Shown here: positions 152 through 37,753 of the stretch, piece by piece
Layout: each line of letters starts with the position of its first letter
How positions within the stretch are numbered: the first letter of the stretch is position 1
Origin: a bacterium BMS3Abin03
GTDB lineage: Bacteria; Bacteroidota; Ignavibacteria; Ignavibacteriales; Ignavibacteriaceae
Assembly: GCA_002898075.1 (NCBI GenBank)
Contig: BDSV01000064.1
Span: 1 to 37,753, forward strand
Length of the DNA: 37,753 bases
Direction: 5' to 3'
Notes under the pieces: model-generated
Told to the model about the DNA's origin: nothing
The model's input: only the letters and a program-made list of their open reading frames with translations
The model's database searches: none
Made by a program: the position numbers and the translations under genes

Positions 152-520
152 TCATTTACAGATAAAATTTTGTTGTGCGAAACTACCTTTACTTAAACTT
201 TGGCTATGGGTATTTAATCCGGTTTCTGTTTTAATAATGTTTTTGTTAAGATATAATATAACGCTCGATGCCTGGTTCTGAGTTGATGCAGACACATTAT
301 TATCTACAGCCAGGTGAGCTAATAATTTTTCAACGTTTTCTTTCTTTAATTCTTTTGGGTGGTTCGTTCCATTATAAATGATATAATCTTTTATCCATTT
401 AACATACGATTGAATTGTTTCGGGGTTGTAACTTTTGGTGTGCATATTCTGGTGGATTTGCATAAGCAGCTTTGTTCTGCTTTTTACCCGCCCGATATTT
501 GTTTTTGCGCCCATCATCAA
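152..520 (-). pseudogene. Tyrosine recombinase (integron/phage-type integrase), N-terminal fragment
   Basis: The first ~95 residues match the N-terminal SAM-like, core-binding domain of integron-type and related tyrosine recombinases: a Tyr-x-x-x-T-x-x-x-Y-x-x-W-I segment near residues 31-43, then H-P-x-E-x, L-A-H-L-A-V near 67-72, and A-S-T-Q-N-Q-A near 79-85. That domain clamps DNA at the recombination site. The family is usually over 300 residues, and the whole catalytic domain with its R-H-R-Y residues is absent. Homology stops near residue 100 and an unrelated ~20-residue tail leads to the stop. Only 151 bp remain to the window edge and another gene seems to start there, so the rest is not simply out of frame. 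I call it a truncated, inactive relic. Confidence 0.75.
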
Positions 521-569: not shown

Positions 570-709
570 TCACACGGGAGCGATTGTATTTATAAGTATT
601 TCTTTCATTGACACCAGGATTAATCACGGTGTTAATGGAATTGTAACCTGAATTATTAACAATTTTAAAAGTTTTAAATATGATACGATCAACTTGAGTA
701 AATTAATAA
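570..709. repeat. Degenerate copy (A) of the CTCAAGTTGACC MITE-like family
   Basis: Read on the minus strand from 709, the sequence has TTAATTTACTCAAGTTGA, then an AT-rich spacer, a decayed AAAACTTTTAAAATTGTT palindrome near 662-680, and an internal segment (ATTAATCCTGGTGTCAATG, about 606-625) that matches the interior of the complete element at 12544-12685. The far terminal repeat is too decayed to fix its end. The near end overlaps the stop codon of the M23 peptidase gene. Confidence 0.5.
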
Positions 710-1662
710 TTTACCCCAACTTGATTAAACACCAGACTGTTCCTCACCAAAAACCTTCCGTTAAAAACAACCGGTATTCCTTCGCCGGTTAAAATAGGAA
801 TTTCTTCGCCGCCCTTTTCTGCATGGATGTGCAAATGCGGTTCGCTCGTGTTGCCTGTATTTCCCACTCTTCCAACCGGCTGACCCGTAGTGATTGTGTC
901 GCCTTCAGATACCATTAAACTGTTTTTCATCATGTGTGCGATAAGAATTTTATAACCGTCACCTAAAATTACAACACGGTTGCCTGCAATGTTGTTCCTG
1001 TTTTCTTTAAAATTTTCCCTGTTTATCTGCGGCGGTATTTGATCTTCTAAATTATTTTCTGTTTCGATAACAATTCCGTTACAGGGACTGTAAACCGTAT
1101 CTCCAAATATTTCATATTTAGTTAATGTTTCCGGTAGAATTCCTTCTGCTCTTATTCCGAAGATGTTCAGCTTAACAATGTCGAGTGCAAAACGCTGAGA
1201 GGTAACTATATTATGATAATTGATAACCGGGCTGCTTCCGCCGTGCCCGACGTAGTAGATACCATTCTTTAACGGGAAAGATAAATTGATCGGTTTTTCA
1301 TTATAAAAATAACCCGATATGGCAAACGCACTAAAGAGAAGAAATATGACTATTACAATAATATTAATCCCCGTAAAAAACCACGTTTTAATATCTTTCC
1401 GGATGTAAAATGTAGCGCTGCGGTTTCCACGGTATGTTTTGTAAAGTACAATAAAAAATAAGAGAAGCCACAGATACCTGAAATAGTAACCTACCCAATC
1501 CCATCTGCCTGATAGAAAGATGTATAAAAAAAATGTGCCGACAAGAAGGGAACGTATCAGCCAGTCGAATTTAGTTTTATACTTTCCTTTCCAAAGCCAG
1601 AAGAGAAACCATGCAGGCAGAAACAGGTGAGTAAATAATAATATGGATATTTGAAACATCAT
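703..1662 (-). CDS. Membrane-anchored M23-family (LytM-type) metallopeptidase
   Basis: Residues 1-120 hold about four hydrophobic helices (near 2-24, 36-52, 57-75 and 96-118). The C-terminal ~180 residues form an M23 zinc-peptidase domain. Visible ligands are His150 and Asp161 in Y-H-N-I-V...F-A-L-D-I-V, His243 in I-A-H-M, and the H-L-H-I-H motif at 276-280. The segment V-G-R-V-G-N-T-G-N-T-S-E-P-H-L-H-I-H is diagnostic. Family members cut peptidoglycan cross-bridges, and the topology places the domain in the periplasm. It starts 23 bp after the acyltransferase stop, so the two are probably co-transcribed. The gene's 3' end lies in repeat copy A. The metal site looks complete, but the exact substrate is unknown. 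Confidence 0.85.
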   Translation of the reverse strand: MMFQISILLFTHLFLPAWFLFWLWKGKYKTKFDWLIRSLLVGTFFLYIFLSGRWDWVGYYFRYLWLLLFFIVLYKTYRGNRSATFYIRKDIKTWFFTGINIIVIVIFLLFSAFAISGYFYNEKPINLSFPLKNGIYYVGHGGSSPVINYHNIVTSQRFALDIVKLNIFGIRAEGILPETLTKYEIFGDTVYSPCNGIVIETENNLEDQIPPQINRENFKENRNNIAGNRVVILGDGYKILIAHMMKNSLMVSEGDTITTGQPVGRVGNTGNTSEPHLHIHAEKGGEEIPILTGEGIPVVFNGRFLVRNSLVFNQVGVNY

Positions 1663-9804: not shown

Positions 9805-9876
9805 AAAACTTAAACCCGATTACTGCTTTAATAGTTTTAAATTTTTTGCAGTCAACTTGAGTAAATTAATAAATTA
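9805..9876. repeat. Truncated copy (B) of the CTCAAGTTGACC MITE-like family
   Basis: On the minus strand from 9876 it reads TTAATTTACTCAAGTTGAC, then AAAACTATTAAAGCAGT, which matches the subterminal palindrome of the complete element, then TAATCGGG. Only one end is present. It abuts the stop codon of the nuclease gene, as copy A abuts that of the M23 gene. Confidence 0.55.
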
Positions 9877-9878
9877 TT

Positions 9879-10367
9879 TTAAACGAAAATATTATTTGCC
9901 CAAGTAAAGAAATTTGCCAATGAAAAAACCATAATATTTTTATTATTATTTTTTTCAGATGTATATTTTTTATTACTAACAGCTGTCTTCAACCATTCTT
10001 TTGCACCTTTTTTCCAACCATCACCGTCGATCAAAATCATAATGTCTTTTTCGGGCATAGCTTCAATTGAATTTAGATATAAGTAAGGTAATTTTTCATC
10101 TACAGAGCCTGCAACTTGTTGCCATTTACATTCAATTCTAATTCTGAGGTTATATTTTTTAGATAGTAATAAAAACTCTGTATTACCTTTATGTTTATAA
10201 ATAGTTTCAAATGGAACATTTTTGAGCAATAATTCGGCTCCAAATCTATCAGGATTTTTAACCCATTCACGATACATTTGAATGTCAAAACCTTTTCCAG
10301 AAAGTACTGTTTGAACAGCTATTTCAAGCTGATTGCCTGTTATATTGCCTTTGGTTCCTTTTTGCAT
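9879..10367 (-). CDS. Probable type II restriction endonuclease, PD-(D/E)XK superfamily
   Basis: This 162-residue protein has the core of a PD-(D/E)XK nuclease: I-R-I-E-C-K-W-Q-Q at 77-84 gives the E-x-K pair (Glu79, Lys81), and acidic residues about 15 positions earlier (Glu64 in G-N-T-E-F-L-L-L) may complete the metal site. The following Y-L-Y-L-N...I-M-I-L-I-D-G-D-G-W-K-K-G-A resembles small restriction enzymes partnered with D12-class methylases. Its start lies 44 bp inside the methylase gene, so the two are translated from one message with the methylase first, the safe order for a restriction system. The recognition site cannot be deduced. No lesion is visible. Confidence 0.75.
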   Translation of the reverse strand: MQKGTKGNITGNQLEIAVQTVLSGKGFDIQMYREWVKNPDRFGAELLLKNVPFETIYKHKGNTEFLLLSKKYNLRIRIECKWQQVAGSVDEKLPYLYLNSIEAMPEKDIMILIDGDGWKKGAKEWLKTAVSNKKYTSEKNNNKNIMVFSLANFFTWANNIFV

Positions 10368-11352
10368 AATTTACAACATCGTAATTTGTTATTAAAATTT
10401 CATTAATTGCTTTTCGTTTTGTAGCATCAGAATTTATCATTCTTTTGGCTGGAACTCTAATAATATTATATCCCTTATAAATTAAATCGAAAAAATTATC
10501 TTGCGGGTCAATATTTGTAGGATCCGAATTACTTAACATTTGAAGAATGTTCATTTCGTTTAATTCGTTAAATAAAGTTGCAAGTTTAATTTGTTCATCG
10601 TCTTTAAAATTTAACTTACTGTAAGATGTAAAATTCGAGGTTTTGCTAATAGGGCGATATGGAGGGTCAAAATAAACAAATGATGAATTTTTGATATTGT
10701 TTCTTACTTCTGTAAAATCTGCTTTTTCGATTTGAGCAATTTCTAATAACTTAGAAACATTAAGCAAATTTGTTTCATCCAAAATTTTTGGTCTTATATA
10801 TTTTCCAATTGGCGCATTAAATTCACCTTTTGAGTTAAATCTAAAAAGTCCGTTAAAACAAGTTTTATTCAAGAATATTATCTGAGCTGCACGCGGAATC
10901 CAATTTTCCGAAAATTTATTATAATCAATGTTAAATCTTTGTTGATTGAAATTATGACGCAAATCATAAAAATATACTTTCCTCTTTTCTTGGTTCAGTT
11001 TTAAATATTGTTTGCTAAATCTTTCTAAGAATTCAATTAATTTTTCAACTTTTCTTTGAATTACTTTATACACAAGTATTAACTCATCATTGATATCGTA
11101 AAGATAAGCTGAATCAATTTCATAGTTTTGTGCAATATCAAAGAAGACAGCACCACCGCCAACGAATGGTTCATAATAATGCTTTATCTTTTTTTGTTTT
11201 AATTCTAATGGATACAATTCATTAAATATTGGTAAAAGCTGGCTTTTACCACCAACCCATTTTAGAAATGGCTTTGCTCCAAGCGAATACTTATAAAATA
11301 AGTCTTTTACTTTACTTGGACTTTTATCATTATTGTTTGTATTATTTTTCAT
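10324..11352 (-). CDS. DNA adenine-N6 methyltransferase, Dam/D12 class
   Basis: The motifs of the D12 class appear in order: P-F-L-K-W-V-G-G-K-S-Q-L-L at 28-40 (SAM-binding motif X), Y-E-P-F-V-G-G-G-A-V-F at 60-70 (motif I), N-K-T-C-F-N-G-L-F-R-F-N at 162-173, and the catalytic D-P-P-Y at 229-232. The C-terminal A-I-N-E-I-L-I-T-N-Y block is also typical. It methylates adenine in a short site, protecting the genome from the overlapping nuclease. Many relatives act on GATC, but this is not certain here; GATC is frequent in this window, so there is no sign of avoidance. The gene is very AT-rich and sits between two pseudogenes, which suggests acquisition by transfer. Confidence 0.92.
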   Translation of the reverse strand: MKNNTNNNDKSPSKVKDLFYKYSLGAKPFLKWVGGKSQLLPIFNELYPLELKQKKIKHYYEPFVGGGAVFFDIAQNYEIDSAYLYDINDELILVYKVIQRKVEKLIEFLERFSKQYLKLNQEKRKVYFYDLRHNFNQQRFNIDYNKFSENWIPRAAQIIFLNKTCFNGLFRFNSKGEFNAPIGKYIRPKILDETNLLNVSKLLEIAQIEKADFTEVRNNIKNSSFVYFDPPYRPISKTSNFTSYSKLNFKDDEQIKLATLFNELNEMNILQMLSNSDPTNIDPQDNFFDLIYKGYNIIRVPAKRMINSDATKRKAINEILITNYDVVNYAKRNQRQYNRQSA

Positions 11353-11584: not shown

Positions 11585-12561
11585 TTATCTTAACAAAATC
11601 GTTTTCTTTACCGCCGAATAATTCCCGCTAATTAATCTGTAAAAATAAACGCCGCTTGGTAAATTACCCGCATCGAATTCAGTTTTGTAAATACCGGCTT
11701 GCTTATATTCATTCACTAACGTTTTAATTTCTGTTCCTAATGCATCATATATTTTTATCTGTACTATTTCTGAAGATGGGATTGAATAATTAATAGTAGC
11801 CGAAGGATTAAACGGGTTCGGGTAATTTTGTTCTAATTCAAAGGATGAAACAGTCTGCGATCCAAAATTTTCTATACCGGTTTGACCATCGGAATTTAAA
11901 CGAACCAGCCAAAGATCTTTATAACCTGCGTCGTACGACTCGGTAAATCCGCCATCCGATGTTTGCTCTATGGAAGCGCCAATATCATTACTGTTTCCGC
12001 CCAAATACCTCGTCCAGATTGTATTGCCAGTAGTATCCGTTTTGATTAACAAGAGATCTGCATCTCCAAAAGCCGAATGAGAAAAAGTAAATCCCAAACA
12101 AGAAAATCGTTGTCCAATGTTTGAATTACAGATCTACCGACATCGGTACTGCTTCCGCCAAAGGTTTTTGTCCATAATGTGTCGCCATTACTATCTGTTC
12201 TTATCAGCCAGGCATTAAGATTGCCGGCGCCGTAGGAAGCAGTAAGCCCGGTAATGATATAACCACCATCCGTTGTTTGTTGAACTGAAACACCTTCATC
12301 AACATTTAACCCGCCGAAAGTTTTTTCTCACGTTGCCTCGCCGCTACTGTTTGTTTTAATAAGCCACACATCAGAATTCCCTGCGCCGAATGAACAAGTA
12401 TATCCAATAATAATATAACCCCCATCTATTGTTTGATGCGCTGAATATCCTTCGTCATCATCAATTCCTCCAAAAGTTTTTATCCATTCTGTATTGAGCT
12501 GTGCATAGATGTGAACAGGAATTACAAAACAAAATAAAATTAACTCAAGTTGACCGGTCAT
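11585..12561 (-). pseudogene. T9SS repeat protein, broken by nonsense, frameshift and deletion
   Basis: The rebuilt protein has the same G-D-T-L-W-T-K-T-F-G-G / Q-T-x-D-G-G-Y-I-I-T-G repeats as the gene at 2558-4027 and ends in a type A sorting domain (N-Y-P-N-P-F-N-P...K-K-T-I-L-L-R). The lesions are a TGA at 12328-12330 where Trp (TGG) is expected in G-E-A-T-W-E-K-T-F-G-G, a one-base frameshift at about 12092-12098, and a short in-frame loss in the last repeat (Q-T-S-D-G-G-F directly joined to T-E-S-Y-D-A-G). The first codons, M-T-G-Q-L-E-L, are encoded by the terminal repeat of the MITE-like element at 12544-12685, so the original signal-peptide start has been replaced. Confidence 0.8.
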
Positions 12562-12685
12562 TTTGTTAAACCGTTAAAACGGTTAAATTTGTAAGTGTTT
12601 ATACCATTACCACCGGGATTAATGAAACGAAAGCCCTAATTACTAACTGTTTTAACAGTTGAAGATTTTAACCGGTCAACTTGAG
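12544..12685. mobile_element. Complete 142-bp MITE-like element with perfect 15-bp terminal inverted repeats
   Basis: CTCAAGTTGACCGGT at 12544-12558 is the exact reverse complement of 12671-12685. Ten bases inside each end lies a 16-bp palindrome: AACCGTTAAAACGGTT at 12569-12584 and AACTGTTTTAACAGTT at 12645-12660. The layout is therefore mirror-symmetric: 15-bp repeat, 10-bp spacer, 16-bp palindrome, 60-bp core. No ORF of meaningful size is inside. Fragments at 570-709, 9805-9876 and 15698-15731 share the ends, and copy A also shares the core. It looks like a non-autonomous element moved in trans, but no transposase is in the window. Confidence 0.75.
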
Positions 12686-13366
12686 AAAATTAATATAGAA
12701 AGCAGCTTTTTCATATTAACATTCCTTTCTTATTTCATCTTTTATTTAGGAGTATCGAGTGTTTCCCGGTATTTATTCCCCCATTTCAATGAATGGACTA
12801 TTAAAAGATTAACAATTCATTCTATTAATTCAATTTTCTATCGACTCGGGAAAAAAATAAAATAGGCAGTAAACAGTGCAGGTTTATTAACAACTGTTGA
12901 ACAGTAATTTTACTTTTTAGATTTAGCGGAAAAACTTTGCAAATAAGTACATAGCGGCTGGTTGGTTGGATTTTTATGTGATGTACGATTGCCATATTTT
13001 GTTTTTTCCTTTAAATACTAAACGACAAACACAATCCACATTGTATGGATTTAGGTTTAATCGTGTTATTACTCCGGTAAAAAAAAGGTTGCATTCAGTC
13101 TATTTGTAATTTGGTTTTCGGATTTTGATTTTTTAATGAACTCACCCTAATCTCTCTTCCCGCAAAAGTCGGGACAGGTAAAAAGAGAGAAGAACATGGA
13201 AAAATCCAAAAACCAAATAGGAATTGTATTATAACTTCTCCACAAATTAAATGCACAGTAAATAATTGCCGGGTTAATATAATATTTTGAAAAGAGTTCC
13301 ATTAATATTCTTTACGCGGAAATATTTAAATATAAAAATTAAAGAAGAGATTTTACTTTTGTAAAA
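12686..13366. other. Long intergenic interval without recognised genes
   Basis: No supported ORF or RNA was found. The only plus-strand frame here (to 12865) begins inside the MITE-like element and has no family resemblance. The notable structure is the nested inverted repeat at 13109-13218, listed separately. Confidence 0.5.
13109..13218. repeat. 110-bp nested inverted repeat
   Basis: The outer arms ATTTGGTTTTCGGATTTT (13109-13126) and AAAAATCCAAAAACCAAAT (13200-13218) pair with one mismatch. Inside is a second stem, TCTCTCTT (13151-13158) with AAGAGAGA (13183-13190), capped by CCCG/CGGG (13159-13162 and 13170-13173). The inner part begins CTCACCCTAATCTCTC and looks like a REP-type hairpin placed inside another element. 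Confidence 0.6.
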
Positions 13367-33547: not shown

Positions 33548-33575
33548 GTAGGGGCGACCTGGCAGGTCGCCCTAC
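33548..33575. repeat. REP-like hairpin
   Basis: GTAGGGGCGACCT and AGGTCGCCCTAC form a 12-bp stem with one bulged G and a 3-base loop. It lacks a T-tract and lies in a gene-free stretch (33346-33682) with nothing else recognised. Confidence 0.6.
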
Positions 33576-33682
33576 AAATGTTTGTATAGAAACAGTATCT
33601 TGTTTGCAACACTAAAAGATTTGTATTTGATATATCATACTGTATCCGGTGCTTTCCGGAATCTGATTGTTGTAATTTAAAT

Positions 33683-33738: not shown

Positions 33739-35097
33739 TTACTTGAGCAGTGTCATTTTTTTAACCTGAACAAACTCGCCTGCTTCCAGGCGATAGAAAT
33801 ACATTCCGCTATTTAAACCCACTGCATCAAAATTAACCTGGTGAGTCCCTGCTTCCATAGATTGATTAAGCAGAAGCGCAACTTCCTGACCTAAGGTATT
33901 GAATACCGTTAATGTTACAACGGTTGCTTCAGGAATGGTAAATTTAATGGTTGTACTCGGGTTAAAAGGATTCGGGTAGTTCTGCGTAAGATCGAACTCC
34001 AACGGATTAACAACATCTGCAAAGACTATATTAGAGTATTCAAAGCTGCCGTCTAAATCGATTTGTTTCAACCTGTAAGTATAATTGCCTTCTGTAAGAT
34101 TATTGTCGGTATAAGAATAATGATGGATTTCGGTAGTTGTTCCGTAACCCTGAATAAAGGCAATCTTTTCCCATACATCGGTTTGTACTGAGCGCTGAAT
34201 TTCGAAACCGGAATTGTTTAATTCTGTTGCTGTAATCCAGTTAAGAGTAACAGCATTTTCATTTACGGATGCAACGAATGAAGCTAACTCAACCGGTACT
34301 CCGGGTCCAACAACTCCCGGGTCGGGTGCAACATAAAGAGTATCCCATGTAACAAGAATATCCTCGGTGGTTTCATCGTGCCCGGTAATCCCGTTACCGC
34401 CGCTGTTAACTTCGTTGGCACCTTCAAGCTTCTCTCTCTTAGTTGAATATCCATAACCGGGATCGGTTAGTTGTAGAGGCATAGTATGCGCATCGGGTAA
34501 ATAAGTAGAAGGTGTGGTATCTGCATCGGGACCATCGACAGCAAGCCCGGTCTTATCACCAATATCGTTTGATGAGCTTGGTGTACCGAGATTGACCATA
34601 TCAATATCTTCAACAAGGTCAGACGCACCGTCCCAGAAAAACAGGCATGCATTTTCACCGGAATTCGTAAGCCCGGCACTCGTGCCAACGTCGGTTTGAA
34701 GCATATCCGGTGTTCCGGGGTCGGTCATTTTTATTTCGTAATCGGCAGCGAAACCGAAATCAGTTAAAAACCCTGCGCCGTCAAATGCAATTACAACAAC
34801 CTGCCCGGCAGCAATAACAGCACCGGATGGAAATTGTGCAATAAAATCGGATGAGCCGATATTAGGAGCAGGACCGGCGCCAAATGCACCCGGCAGAAGA
34901 GCATAATCTTCATCATCGCTCAAATAGTAGTTTGTTAAATCAACGGGAGCGCCTGTCGGATTGTAAATCTCGATGAATTCATCCGCTGTCGGCGTAAGAA
35001 CAGCTTCCGTAAGTAAAAGATGATCTTGCGCTATGATGTTTGTGCTTATTAAGAACGCACAAATTAATATTAAAACAGGAAGTAGGTTTTTTTTCAT
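33739..35097 (-). CDS. Secreted T9SS protein with lamin-tail domain
   Basis: A signal peptide (1-24, ending I-I-A-Q) is followed by a lamin-tail (LTD) domain at ~26-175: L-L-L-T-E-A-V-L-T-P-T-A-D-E-F-I-E-I-Y-N-P-T and V-D-L-T-N-Y-Y-L-S-D-D are diagnostic. An Fn3-like module follows at ~285-370 (V-E-L-A-S-F-V-A-S-V...L-N-W-I-T-A-T-E-L-N-N-S-G-F-E-I-Q-R). The type A sorting domain ends the chain (N-Y-P-N-P-F-N-P, K-M-T-L-L-K). LTDs occur in secreted surface proteins and nucleases; no catalytic domain is seen here. The Fn3 site that carries insertions in its two neighbours has only five residues here (V-Q-T-D-V). Confidence 0.85.
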   Translation of the reverse strand: MKKNLLPVLILICAFLISTNIIAQDHLLLTEAVLTPTADEFIEIYNPTGAPVDLTNYYLSDDEDYALLPGAFGAGPAPNIGSSDFIAQFPSGAVIAAGQVVVIAFDGAGFLTDFGFAADYEIKMTDPGTPDMLQTDVGTSAGLTNSGENACLFFWDGASDLVEDIDMVNLGTPSSSNDIGDKTGLAVDGPDADTTPSTYLPDAHTMPLQLTDPGYGYSTKREKLEGANEVNSGGNGITGHDETTEDILVTWDTLYVAPDPGVVGPGVPVELASFVASVNENAVTLNWITATELNNSGFEIQRSVQTDVWEKIAFIQGYGTTTEIHHYSYTDNNLTEGNYTYRLKQIDLDGSFEYSNIVFADVVNPLEFDLTQNYPNPFNPSTTIKFTIPEATVVTLTVFNTLGQEVALLLNQSMEAGTHQVNFDAVGLNSGMYFYRLEAGEFVQVKKMTLLK

Positions 35098-35192: not shown

Positions 35193-36407
35193 TTACTTGA
35201 TTAAACTCATTTTTTTTACTTGAATAAAATTTGCCGACTCAAGCTTATAAAAATATATACCGCTCTTCAAAGTTGAAGCATTAAAACTAATCGAATATAC
35301 ACCTGTTTCTTCATACCTATCAATTAGTACACTTACAACTTCGCCCAGAATATTAAAAACCGTAAGCTTAACGTTTCCTGCTTTGGGGATTTGATATTTT
35401 ATTGTTGTCGATGGATTGAACGGATTCGGATAATTCTGGCTGAGTTCATACTGTAACGGCAAACCCAAATCAATCTCAATTACTTTTGAATACTCAAACG
35501 AACCGTCGTTATCAATTTGTTTTAATCTGTATGCATATCTCCCGGAGCTAATATCATTATCAACAAAAGAATATCTCTTTGGAGAATTGGAATTACCGTG
35601 CCCTTCCACAAATCCGATCTTCTTCCAACCACTATTTCTCCCTCCGTCGGGGAGACTAAGGATGGTTGCTCTTTCAACATCAAAACCATAATTATTAACT
35701 TCGGTTTCCGTACGCCAATTAAGTTTAACAGCATCATCTGCAATGCTTGCAGAGAAGGATGTGAGTTCTACGGGGAGAGGAGGATTGTTGATAATATCAG
35801 TTTCTTTATAAGTATCAGCACTATTATCATTGGTATCCCATCCACTGCCATTTGTACCATATGTATTATTTCCATTATTATCTTTTCTCCTCACACTCGA
35901 AGTATTGTTAGGGGCGGGTGCTGCACCAGATCCTTCAAAAGCATTGGCTAAGCCATATCCTATAAAATCTATTACATTAGGATCACTAGTTGGATCTGAG
36001 ACAGTTAATGCTATTTGGTTATTTACAAGTGCAACTTTACCTTTAGTTGCACTTATACTAATTGTTCCAATAACATTTGGTACAAAAGGAAGTGGGGCCA
36101 TATCTCCGCTCGAGCCCCCAGCTTCTTGAATTGAGTAATAGCTACCAGAAGTTATCGTACTATTTAAATTTGTAACATGCCAAGTTAATGAATTATATGC
36201 TGCATACTGAACTGACCAAGTTGAAATGTCAGTGTTAGAAGCAGTTGGATTGTAAAGTATTATATAGTCATTTGCCCAATGAGACTCATTGTTTCCACCT
36301 CCACCATATGTTTCTGCTATAACTATATGATTTGCCACTTGACCTAAAATAGCAATATTAAAGCAAGCCAAAACAAAAATAAAAATGAATGGAGCAATTT
36401 TTCTCAT
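35193..36407 (-). CDS. Secreted T9SS protein with lamin-tail domain, paralogue
   Basis: I start at 36407, where the ATG has AAGGAGG 6-7 bases upstream and a signal peptide (M-R-K-I-A-P-F-I-F...I-L-G-Q); the frame is open to 36497 but with no ribosome site. An LTD domain follows: V-I-A-E-T-Y-G-G-G-G-N-N-E, D-Y-I-I-L-Y-N-P-T, W-S-V-Q-Y-A, as in LTDs of secreted nucleases, but with no nuclease domain. The Fn3-like module (V-E-L-T-S-F...L-N-W-R-T-E-T-E-V-N-N-Y-G-F-D-V-E-R) and type A sorting domain match its neighbours. A 14-residue insertion (35628-35669) looks like a repeat caught in frame. Confidence 0.83.
   Translation of the reverse strand: MRKIAPFIFIFVLACFNIAILGQVANHIVIAETYGGGGNNESHWANDYIILYNPTASNTDISTWSVQYAAYNSLTWHVTNLNSTITSGSYYSIQEAGGSSGDMAPLPFVPNVIGTISISATKGKVALVNNQIALTVSDPTSDPNVIDFIGYGLANAFEGSGAAPAPNNTSSVRRKDNNGNNTYGTNGSGWDTNDNSADTYKETDIINNPPLPVELTSFSASIADDAVKLNWRTETEVNNYGFDVERATILSLPDGGRNSGWKKIGFVEGHGNSNSPKRYSFVDNDISSGRYAYRLKQIDNDGSFEYSKVIEIDLGLPLQYELSQNYPNPFNPSTTIKYQIPKAGNVKLTVFNILGEVVSVLIDRYEETGVYSISFNASTLKSGIYFYKLESANFIQVKKMSLIK
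35628..35669 (-). repeat. In-frame 42-bp palindromic insertion in the LTD paralogue
   Basis: It encodes A-T-I-L-S-L-P-D-G-G-R-N-S-G between V-E-R and W-K-K-I-G-F. On the DNA, TCTCCC and GGGAGA face each other around CGACGGA. The site equals that of the insertion at 37091-37144. Confidence 0.6.
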
Positions 36408-36649
36408 ACATTCCTCCTTCTCATTGTTTGCAATGTGTTTGAACTTACAACTCTGAACCGGTATGTTTTTTCCCATATCATATAGCCCTGATAACAAACG
36501 TAATTAATTTTCAGCAAAAGTGCTATTAAATAATTGTTAAGAAATGCTTTTTTTTCAAAATAACTGACAAATATTGCCTTTTATTACCGTGGGAAGCTAA
36601 AATATGCAAAAAAAGTTGGGGTTATTAGTTACTATTATGACATTTGGCA

Positions 36650-37753
36650 CTATTTCAATAGCAGCATTTTCTTTATTATGGAATGAGTAGATGTGGTAAG
36701 CCGGTAAAAATATACACCGCTTGGTAAATCTGTTCCGTTAAATTTTAGATTATAAATTTTACCCGCTTCTGCATTGCCGTTAAACAGCGTGGTAACTTCT
36801 TCACCAAGTTCATTATAAATTTTTAATGAAACAGTTTCATTTTTATTAATTGCAAATTTTATAGAAGTTGAGGGATTAAACGGATTAGGATAATTCTGTT
36901 CGAGCACAAAACCATTTGGTATCTCTCCTGCATCTGCTTCTATAACATCACTGTATTCAAATGTTCCGTCGTTATCTATTTGCTTTAAACGGTAAGCATA
37001 CTTTCCGTATTTTATTCCTTCGTTAATAAATGAATAATATTTGGGTGAGTTACTGTTGCCATGTCCTTCAACGAAACCAATCTTTTCCCAACCACCCCCA
37101 GCTTCGCCACCCCCTTCTTGGTAAGGAGGGGGAAAGGGGGAGGTTCTCTCTACTTCAAATCCGTAATTATTAACTTCAGTTTGAGTTACCCAATTTAGTT
37201 TTACTCCATTAGAAACAATTTTATATGTAAATGAAGATAGCTCGACAGGTAAAGCTGATACACCAATTTTACCAAATACAGTTCCCCACCTGCCATCTTC
37301 GGTTGGATAGTATGGTAAAATTGTACCTCTTGATAATGCATATTCGTTAAAAACATAGAATGTTTGGTCATCGGAAGGATCGACTGATGCACCGGAATAA
37401 TCACCCCATCTATTCTTGGAACCGCCGAATTTTCTTACATAATAATCAACTCCTGCCTTTACAACACCAGGGGTAATTGTAGTACCAGCCGGATCTGTCG
37501 ATAACCTGCCTGTATAATAAAAACCCGGGAAAATTGAAGATGCTGATACTGAAAATCCAACAACCATATCACCGCTTGAATTAACTGCAATGGAAGGGAA
37601 AAAAGTATAAGCACTTGTAGCAATATCTTCACCGCCGATGAACCCGCCGTCGCTGGAACTAAGAGTACTAACTCCATCCGCAGATATTTTAAACCAATAC
37701 GCTGTTGCCTCCCCGGCATCAGTTCCGGAAGGCGGGACAACCGTTGTTGTCGC
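36650..37753 (-). CDS. Secreted T9SS protein, 5' end beyond the window
   Basis: The frame is open through the right edge, so any start inside (e.g. at 37567) would be false. The visible ~170 N-terminal residues have F-P-S-I-A-V-N-S-S-G-D-M-V-V-G-F-S, then R-W-G-D-Y-S-G and V-D-P-S-D-D-Q-T-F-Y-V-F-N-E-Y, a pattern common in secreted proteins of unknown role. An Fn3-like module (V-E-L-S-S-F...L-N-W-V-T-Q-T-E-V-N-N-Y-G-F-E-V-E-R) and type A sorting domain (N-Y-P-N-P-F-N-P, K-M-L-L-L-K) follow. An 18-residue repeat-derived insertion interrupts the Fn3 module at 37091-37144. The 240-bp gap after it toward the next gene holds nothing recognisable. Confidence 0.82.
   Translation of the reverse strand, partial: ATTTVVPPSGTDAGEATAYWFKISADGVSTLSSSDGGFIGGEDIATSAYTFFPSIAVNSSGDMVVGFSVSASSIFPGFYYTGRLSTDPAGTTITPGVVKAGVDYYVRKFGGSKNRWGDYSGASVDPSDDQTFYVFNEYALSRGTILPYYPTEDGRWGTVFGKIGVSALPVELSSFTYKIVSNGVKLNWVTQTEVNNYGFEVERTSPFPPPYQEGGGEAGGGWEKIGFVEGHGNSNSPKYYSFINEGIKYGKYAYRLKQIDNDGTFEYSDVIEADAGEIPNGFVLEQNYPNPFNPSTSIKFAINKNETVSLKIYNELGEEVTTLFNGNAEAGKIYNLKFNGTDLPSGVYFYRLTTSTHSIIKKMLLLK
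37091..37144 (-). repeat. In-frame 54-bp G/C-rich palindromic insertion
   Basis: It encodes T-S-P-F-P-P-P-Y-Q-E-G-G-G-E-A-G-G-G between V-E-R and W-E-K-I-G-F. On the minus strand CCCCCTCCTT and AAGAAGGGGG can pair around ACC. The composition contrasts sharply with the AT-rich gene around it. Confidence 0.7.

What the first reader, a model, noticed from the sequence alone, without database searches (positions are those of the whole stretch)
35628..37144. Different palindromic repeats inserted in frame at the same site of two paralogues
In adjacent T9SS genes the residues between V-E-R and W-(E/K)-K-I-G-F are 14 residues (A-T-I-L-S-L-P-D...) in one and 18 (T-S-P-F-P-P-P-Y-Q-E...) in the other. 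Both derive from unrelated G/C-rich palindromes. The third paralogue has only five residues there. A surface loop seems to be a repeated landing place for coding repeats, similar in principle to Rickettsia palindromic elements, and could vary exposed epitopes.
Basis: partly seen in the sequence, partly recalled or inferred. Interest (0 to 1): 0.7.

Follow-up and report, generated by a model that had tools for sequence, protein, structure and literature searches.

The report
Nuclease-linked palindromic repeats inside proteins
Short G/C-rich palindromes in loops of secreted proteins belong to a widespread repeat class whose means of spread was unknown; across bacteria these repeats bracket genes of one nuclease family (DUF559), cassettes of which also sit in frame inside essential genes, so the nuclease is the first testable candidate for what spreads them.

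Summary
In two adjacent T9SS genes a β-hairpin loop carries 18 and 14 extra coding residues made of pyrimidine/purine palindromes; the third paralogue has six ordinary residues there. In this genome 7 of 28 such loops and 25 of 69 loops in the neighbouring sorting domain carry repeat-like inserts. Several inserts match repeats that bracket the genome's DUF559 nuclease genes (up to 47 of 52 nt).

Following that link gave the larger result. Palindromes with a 5' pyrimidine arm lie within 300 bp of 32/34 and 65/80 DUF559 genes in two samples (many phyla and one archaeon), at 30-125 times the density beyond 1 kb. Controls: 1/30 RAYT loci, 0/30 HNH loci, and no purine-first palindromes next to DUF559. 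Repeat-DUF559-repeat cassettes sit in frame, unspliced, inside MetH, IleRS, LeuRS, MetRS, UvrC, HsdR, CinA and others; MetH is filled in 9 of 58 genomes and empty in the same genus.

The repeats fit the published 'intrastrand triplex motif' class, for which no mobilising enzyme had been found. Best reading: DUF559-associated mobile repeats, tolerated in loops when in frame. That DUF559 itself moves them is inferred, not shown. Epitope variation is untested.

The parts
37091..37144 (-). 18-codon in-frame insert TSPFPPPYQEGGGEAGGG: outer arms plus inner palindrome plus mirrored third strand (GGGGGAGG)
   Evidence: second copy in G000:C233 (L002)
37110..37132 (.). inner pyrimidine/purine palindrome CCCCCTTCTT(GGT)AAGGAGGGGG
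35628..35669 (-). 14-codon in-frame insert ATILSLPDGGRNSG, worn single-copy palindrome TCTCCCtccgtcgGGGAGA with ACCA/TGGT outer ends
   Evidence: (no significant match to DUF559-flank repeats)
34174..34191 (-). empty version of the loop in the third paralogue (SVQTDV, six residues)
35193..36497 (-). T9SS-sorted protein, host gene of the 14-aa insert
36650..37753 (-). T9SS-sorted protein (5' end beyond the contig), host gene of the 18-aa insert
33739..35097 (-). T9SS-sorted paralogue without insert

Best explanation
The inserts are solo copies of a dispersed G/C-rich repeat whose 5' arm is all pyrimidine and 3' arm all purine, often followed by a mirrored third strand (the published 'intrastrand triplex motif'). 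The same repeats form the ends of cassettes repeat-DUF559-repeat, where DUF559 is a small Vsr-like PD-(D/E)xK nuclease. Proposed mechanism: DUF559 cuts DNA at repeats or at fixed target sites, and repair copies in the cassette or a repeat. Recombination between the flanking direct repeats, or movement of a repeat alone, leaves solo repeats. Copies in genes survive only when in frame, stop-free and in a surface loop or linker, hence their concentration in the two hairpin loops of the many T9SS modules. Shown here: dispersal, same-site insertion into paralogues that are otherwise empty, sequence link to DUF559 flanks, genus-level filled and empty alleles of MetH, in-frame cassettes in many host genes. 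Inferred: that DUF559 performs the movement, the cut site, and that the fused proteins are made unspliced.
For: Density of pyrimidine-first palindromes per kb at 0-300 / 300-1000 / >1000 bp from DUF559: 4.0/0.18/0.03 (34 loci of the window's class) and 2.99/0.195/0.095 (80 loci from many phyla); purine-first palindromes 0 within 300 bp; RAYT loci 0.058; HNH loci 0/30. All four DUF559 genes of this genome have such repeats beside them. T9SS inserts match those flanks: sort-loop insert L007 vs L045 47/52 nt, L110 vs L046, Fn3 insert L033 vs the MetH cassette end, L002 and window 37091 cores vs L044; 0 of 111 control segments as good. Direct repeats up to 271 bp bracket DUF559: score >=40 in 37/101 loci vs 4/101 mismatched pairs. 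Host profiles are split around DUF559 in IleRS, LeuRS, MetRS, MetH, UvrC, HsdR, CinA; AroC is cut by the contig end. MetH: 9 of 58 filled, same-genus allele empty. Closely related cassettes sit in metH and in an unrelated GH2-like gene (L067). DUF559 matches the Vsr-like mobile-intron nuclease 3r3p, E 5e-6. Third-strand mirror in 27% of strand-hairpins vs 1.6% of shuffles.
Against: No cleavage or transposition was observed. The 14-aa insert in the window does not match DUF559 flanks above chance. The genome census correlation (DUF559 vs repeat count, rho 0.47) is not specific: RAYT count gives 0.52. Two genomes with many repeats (G030, G047) show no DUF559. In E. coli the ycjD-negative strains examined carry another gene cluster at the site, so no clean empty site was seen. 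The repeats could be a target or passenger of DUF559 rather than its cargo.
Confidence: 0.6

Rival explanations
1. The repeats are targets, not cargo: they spread by some other route (replication slippage, RAYT in trans), and DUF559 genes merely home into existing repeats, which are safe sites.
For: Direct repeats on both sides of DUF559 are what homing into a solo repeat by repair would leave. RAYT count correlates with repeat count as well as DUF559 count does.
Against: Cassettes with repeats at both ends sit at one fixed site in metH whose empty alleles hold no repeat; ileS, leuS and hsdR also hold cassettes. RAYT flanks carry a different palindrome type (1 of 30 with the pyrimidine-first type).
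Confidence: 0.25
2. The loops are ordinary fast-evolving, low-complexity loops; palindromes and similarity arise from G/C-rich codons for Pro and Gly.
For: Folding energies of single inserts are at most 1 to 2.4 sd beyond shuffles, and some are not beyond them at all; several inserts are worn.
Against: Inserts match intergenic repeats nearly base for base (47/52), the copy shared with C233 is more alike than its flanks, and the reversed pattern is rare.
Confidence: 0.07
3. The inserts are selected, for example as variable exposed epitopes or phage-receptor variation in secreted proteins.
For: Exposed disordered loop; different sequences in different paralogues.
Against: Cassettes of the same repeat class occur in cytoplasmic enzymes, and in the repeat-rich relative surveyed 42 of 45 repeats lie between genes.
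Confidence: 0.08

Closest known systems
Intrastrand triplex motifs / PIT / TMECO (Holder et al. 2015, PMC4666352)
   Same: Pyrimidine-arm/purine-arm G/C hairpin with mirrored third strand, dispersed in many genomes; in E. coli K-12 two such motifs lie just 3' of the DUF559 gene ycjD.
   Different: That work found the E. coli motif only between genes and no mobility gene nearby; here the class is tied to DUF559 and occurs in frame inside genes.
REP elements and RAYT transposases (REPtrons)
   Same: Short palindromes bracketing a small gene for a DNA-cutting enzyme, plus solo copies elsewhere.
   Different: Different enzyme family (PD-(D/E)xK instead of Y1 tyrosine) and different palindromes; RAYT loci in the same class carry mixed-arm palindromes, and none of the listed RAYT hits lies in an open frame over 273 aa.
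Rickettsia palindromic elements (RPE)
   Same: In-frame palindromic inserts in unrelated protein genes, tolerated in loops (RPE side from general knowledge).
   Different: No DUF559 link is known to me; sequence families not compared here.
Vsr-like homing endonucleases such as I-Bth0305I (PDB 3r3p); inteins
   Same: Related nuclease by sequence; occupation of a fixed site in a conserved gene, patchy across lineages.
   Different: No intron (Rfam) and no intein domain; the cassette appears to stay in the translated protein.

Membership tests
Intrastrand triplex motif (TM/PIT) | G/C-rich hairpin, stem 6-15, pyrimidine and purine arms | tested here: met
   37110-37132, one mismatch; flank hairpins of 97 of 114 DUF559 loci
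Intrastrand triplex motif (TM/PIT) | mirrored third strand after a short loop | tested here: met
   Window: AAGGAGGGGG-AAA-GGGGGAGG; 27% of strand-hairpins vs 1.6% shuffled. Not clear for the 14-aa insert
Intrastrand triplex motif (TM/PIT) | forms a triplex physically | not testable with these tools
   needs CD/NMR
REP/RAYT system | repeat flanks a Y1 (PF01797) transposase gene | tested here: not met
   1 of 30 RAYT loci has a pyrimidine-first palindrome within 300 bp
Rickettsia palindromic element | in-frame insertion in unrelated protein genes | tested here: met
Rickettsia palindromic element | sequence membership in an RPE family | not tested
   no RPE sequences compared
Homing endonuclease element | nuclease of a homing family | tested here: met
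   profile match to 3r3p, E 5e-6; 3hrl, E 5e-35; sequence only, activity unknown
Homing endonuclease element | same-site occupation with empty alleles in relatives | tested here: met
   MetH 9 filled / 49 empty; all cassettes read lie at the same linker
Homing endonuclease element (intron/intein type) | lies in a self-splicing intron or intein | tested here: not met
   no Rfam intron in 8 loci, no intein domain in 9 proteins

The most novel reading that the evidence does not exclude
A new kind of mobile element: a Vsr-like nuclease gene bounded by triplex-forming palindromes that spreads by homing into conserved genes and persists as an unspliced, translated insert, while its end repeats scatter as the bacterial triplex-motif repeats.
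Probability: 0.45. Interest if true: 0.93.

Novelty: new variant of a known kind. Interest (0 to 1): 0.85.

Why it matters
Triplex-motif repeats have been reported in hundreds of genomes, including E. coli, with no known way of spreading; the paper that catalogued them states that no mobility gene was found nearby (PMC4666352). The DUF559 link gives the first candidate enzyme, small and easy to purify, and makes the question testable in laboratory E. coli through ycjD. It would also give a function to a large DUF family and show a way by which mobile DNA survives inside essential genes without splicing, adding loops to proteins.

Tried and rejected
The search for related loci with a diverse DUF559 alignment failed; repeated with four closer rows. 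E. coli ycjD (3365 of 5426 genomes) looked like a presence/absence test, but the ycjD-negative strains examined have an efflux gene cluster there, so no clean empty site. Census of repeats against DUF559 count: positive but matched by RAYT count, so not used as evidence of cause. Hairpin energies: too weak to decide. Introns and inteins considered and rejected. Assembly error rejected for the cassettes as a class: single-contig genomes hold them too (G165 metH, G119 hsdR). Literature searches for DUF559 with repeats or with tRNA synthetases found no report of the link, within an open-access library only.

Full report
The window lies in a 3.76 Mb draft genome (contig C64 of G000) whose relatives in named collections are Ignavibacterium-like. 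The finding concerns three adjacent genes for proteins with an Fn3-like module and a T9SS sorting domain. The inserts are as described, 18 codons at 37091-37144 and 14 at 35628-35669, with six ordinary residues in the third paralogue.

Scale in this genome. I read the loop in the modules I could parse; the pattern requires an open frame, so out-of-frame inserts would be missed. Seven of 28 Fn3-like loops are 13-18 residues long and C-run/G-run rich; the other 21 have 5-10 residues. In the sorting domain, 44 of 69 loops between the 'SIP' and 'V.LKVYD' strands have five residues and 25 have 10-19. Most of the 25 are one family (SPLPGGDGRGG...) probably copied with the genes, two are a second family, others single, and four are palindromes tagged GTAG, the type usual for RAYT-linked repeats (the GTAG attribution is from general knowledge, see PMC3733652). 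The window's 18-aa insert and its twin in contig C233 are 83% identical while flanking DNA is about 60% identical, so this is a dispersed repeat placed in two paralogues (gene conversion of the insert alone is the less likely alternative). The orthologue of the other gene in a related genus has a short loop, and another genus has its own repeat in the same Fn3 loop (L267). AlphaFold2 (mean pLDDT 87) shows a disordered loop between two confident strands.

The link to a nuclease. Two of the genome's nine strict palindrome sites proved to bracket a DUF559 gene on C18, and two another on C106. All four DUF559 genes have such repeats beside them, and one cassette lies in frame inside methionine synthase. 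In-frame T9SS inserts match these flanks: L007 sort loop against L045, 47 of 52 nt; L110 against L046; L033 Fn3 insert against the MetH cassette end; the window and L002 cores against L044. None of 111 control segments scores as high. The 14-aa insert at 35628 does not pass this test.

Generality. I scored hairpins with exact stems of seven or more, calling 'YR' those with a pyrimidine 5' arm. Within 300 bp of DUF559 there are 4.0 per kb in 34 loci of the class and 2.99 per kb in 80 loci from a GTDB-wide scan, against 0.03 and 0.095 per kb beyond 1 kb. Purine-first palindromes, the composition control, are absent within 300 bp. Thirty RAYT loci from the same class have one YR palindrome and many of a different, mixed-arm type; 30 HNH loci have none. 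Both flanks carry YR repeats in 63 of 105 DUF559 loci with enough sequence and in 0 of 26 RAYT loci. Long direct repeats holding one or two palindromes bracket DUF559 in many loci (up to 271 bp). In E. coli K-12 two such motifs lie just 3' of the DUF559 gene ycjD.

In-frame cassettes. Of about 150 listed DUF559 hits in the class, 25 lie in open frames over 800 codons; the longest RAYT frame listed is 273. Pfam and NCBIfam place DUF559 between two halves of IleRS, MetRS, CinA (profile 141 then 145), MetH, UvrC, LeuRS and HsdR; in AroC only the downstream half is on the contig. The MetH cassettes I read all lie at one linker before the B12 domain; nine of 58 genomes of the order have the long frame, and the same-genus relative is empty (five cassettes read in full, the rest judged by frame length, two of them also by an adjoining DUF559 hit). 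In a tree of 106 DUF559 domains the HsdR cassettes group together (98/97, with one other row) although hosts span Bacteroidota, Spirochaetota, Chloroflexota and an archaeon. A second, well-supported group (99/93) holds metH, ileS, leuS, metG, cinA, aroC and a GH2-like gene, so cassettes both stay at a site across lineages and change gene. Some record titles of metagenome bins are doubtful, so phylum names are as deposited. No intron or intein was found.

From the repeat's side. In 260 kb of a repeat-rich relative (chosen for its DUF559 genes) 42 of 45 YR palindromes are intergenic although 82% is coding, the single clearly internal one is in frame, and 15 of 45 lie within 400 nt of a DUF559 gene against 1.8% expected. 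This fits purging of most coding insertions and survival in tolerant loops.

Comparison with the literature. Holder et al. (PMC4666352) describe this architecture as intrastrand triplex motifs, common in bacteria, linked to instability, with no mobility gene found nearby. One paper studies a DUF559 protein in Caulobacter as a Vsr-like nuclease tied to DNA damage in methylation mutants (PMC12907096). I found no paper linking DUF559 to repeats or to in-frame insertion, in an open-access library only.

What is shown and what is not. Shown: the inserts, their dispersal, the DUF559 association, in-frame cassettes with empty alleles. Inferred: that DUF559 moves the repeats, how, and that the proteins are made unspliced. 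Not tested: any effect on antigenicity.

Noticed in passing
window 33548-33579; also L002, L017, L103, L108 sort-domain loops: A palindrome of the GTAG-tagged type (TAGGGGCGACCTGG..CAGGTCGCCCTA) lies between genes, and GTAG-type palindromes also sit in frame in four sorting-domain loops: a second, RAYT-type repeat class uses the same loop.
   Followed up: partly
window 664-713, 9827-9876, 12651-12700, 12538-12585: A 50-nt repeat containing TCAACTTGAG occurs in direct and inverted copies around a Dam-like methylase and a nuclease-like gene (9879-11352).
   Followed up: no
window 152-520 (-): A short ORF resembling the N-terminal part of a tyrosine recombinase (integrase), apparently truncated.
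   Followed up: no
L268, L269, L272: In related genomes the same Fn3 loop holds A/G-rich AGAAGTCAGAAGTC-like coding repeats, possibly a third repeat class using this loop.
   Followed up: no
L288, L289 (E. coli fabI-sapF): Two E. coli genomes lacking ycjD have parts of a TetR/RND/MFS efflux gene cluster next to fabI or sapF, where ycjD would be.
   Followed up: partly
G030, G047 (class genomes): Many YR palindromes (24 and 32) but no DUF559 hit; either lost, missing from the draft, or another mobiliser.
   Followed up: no
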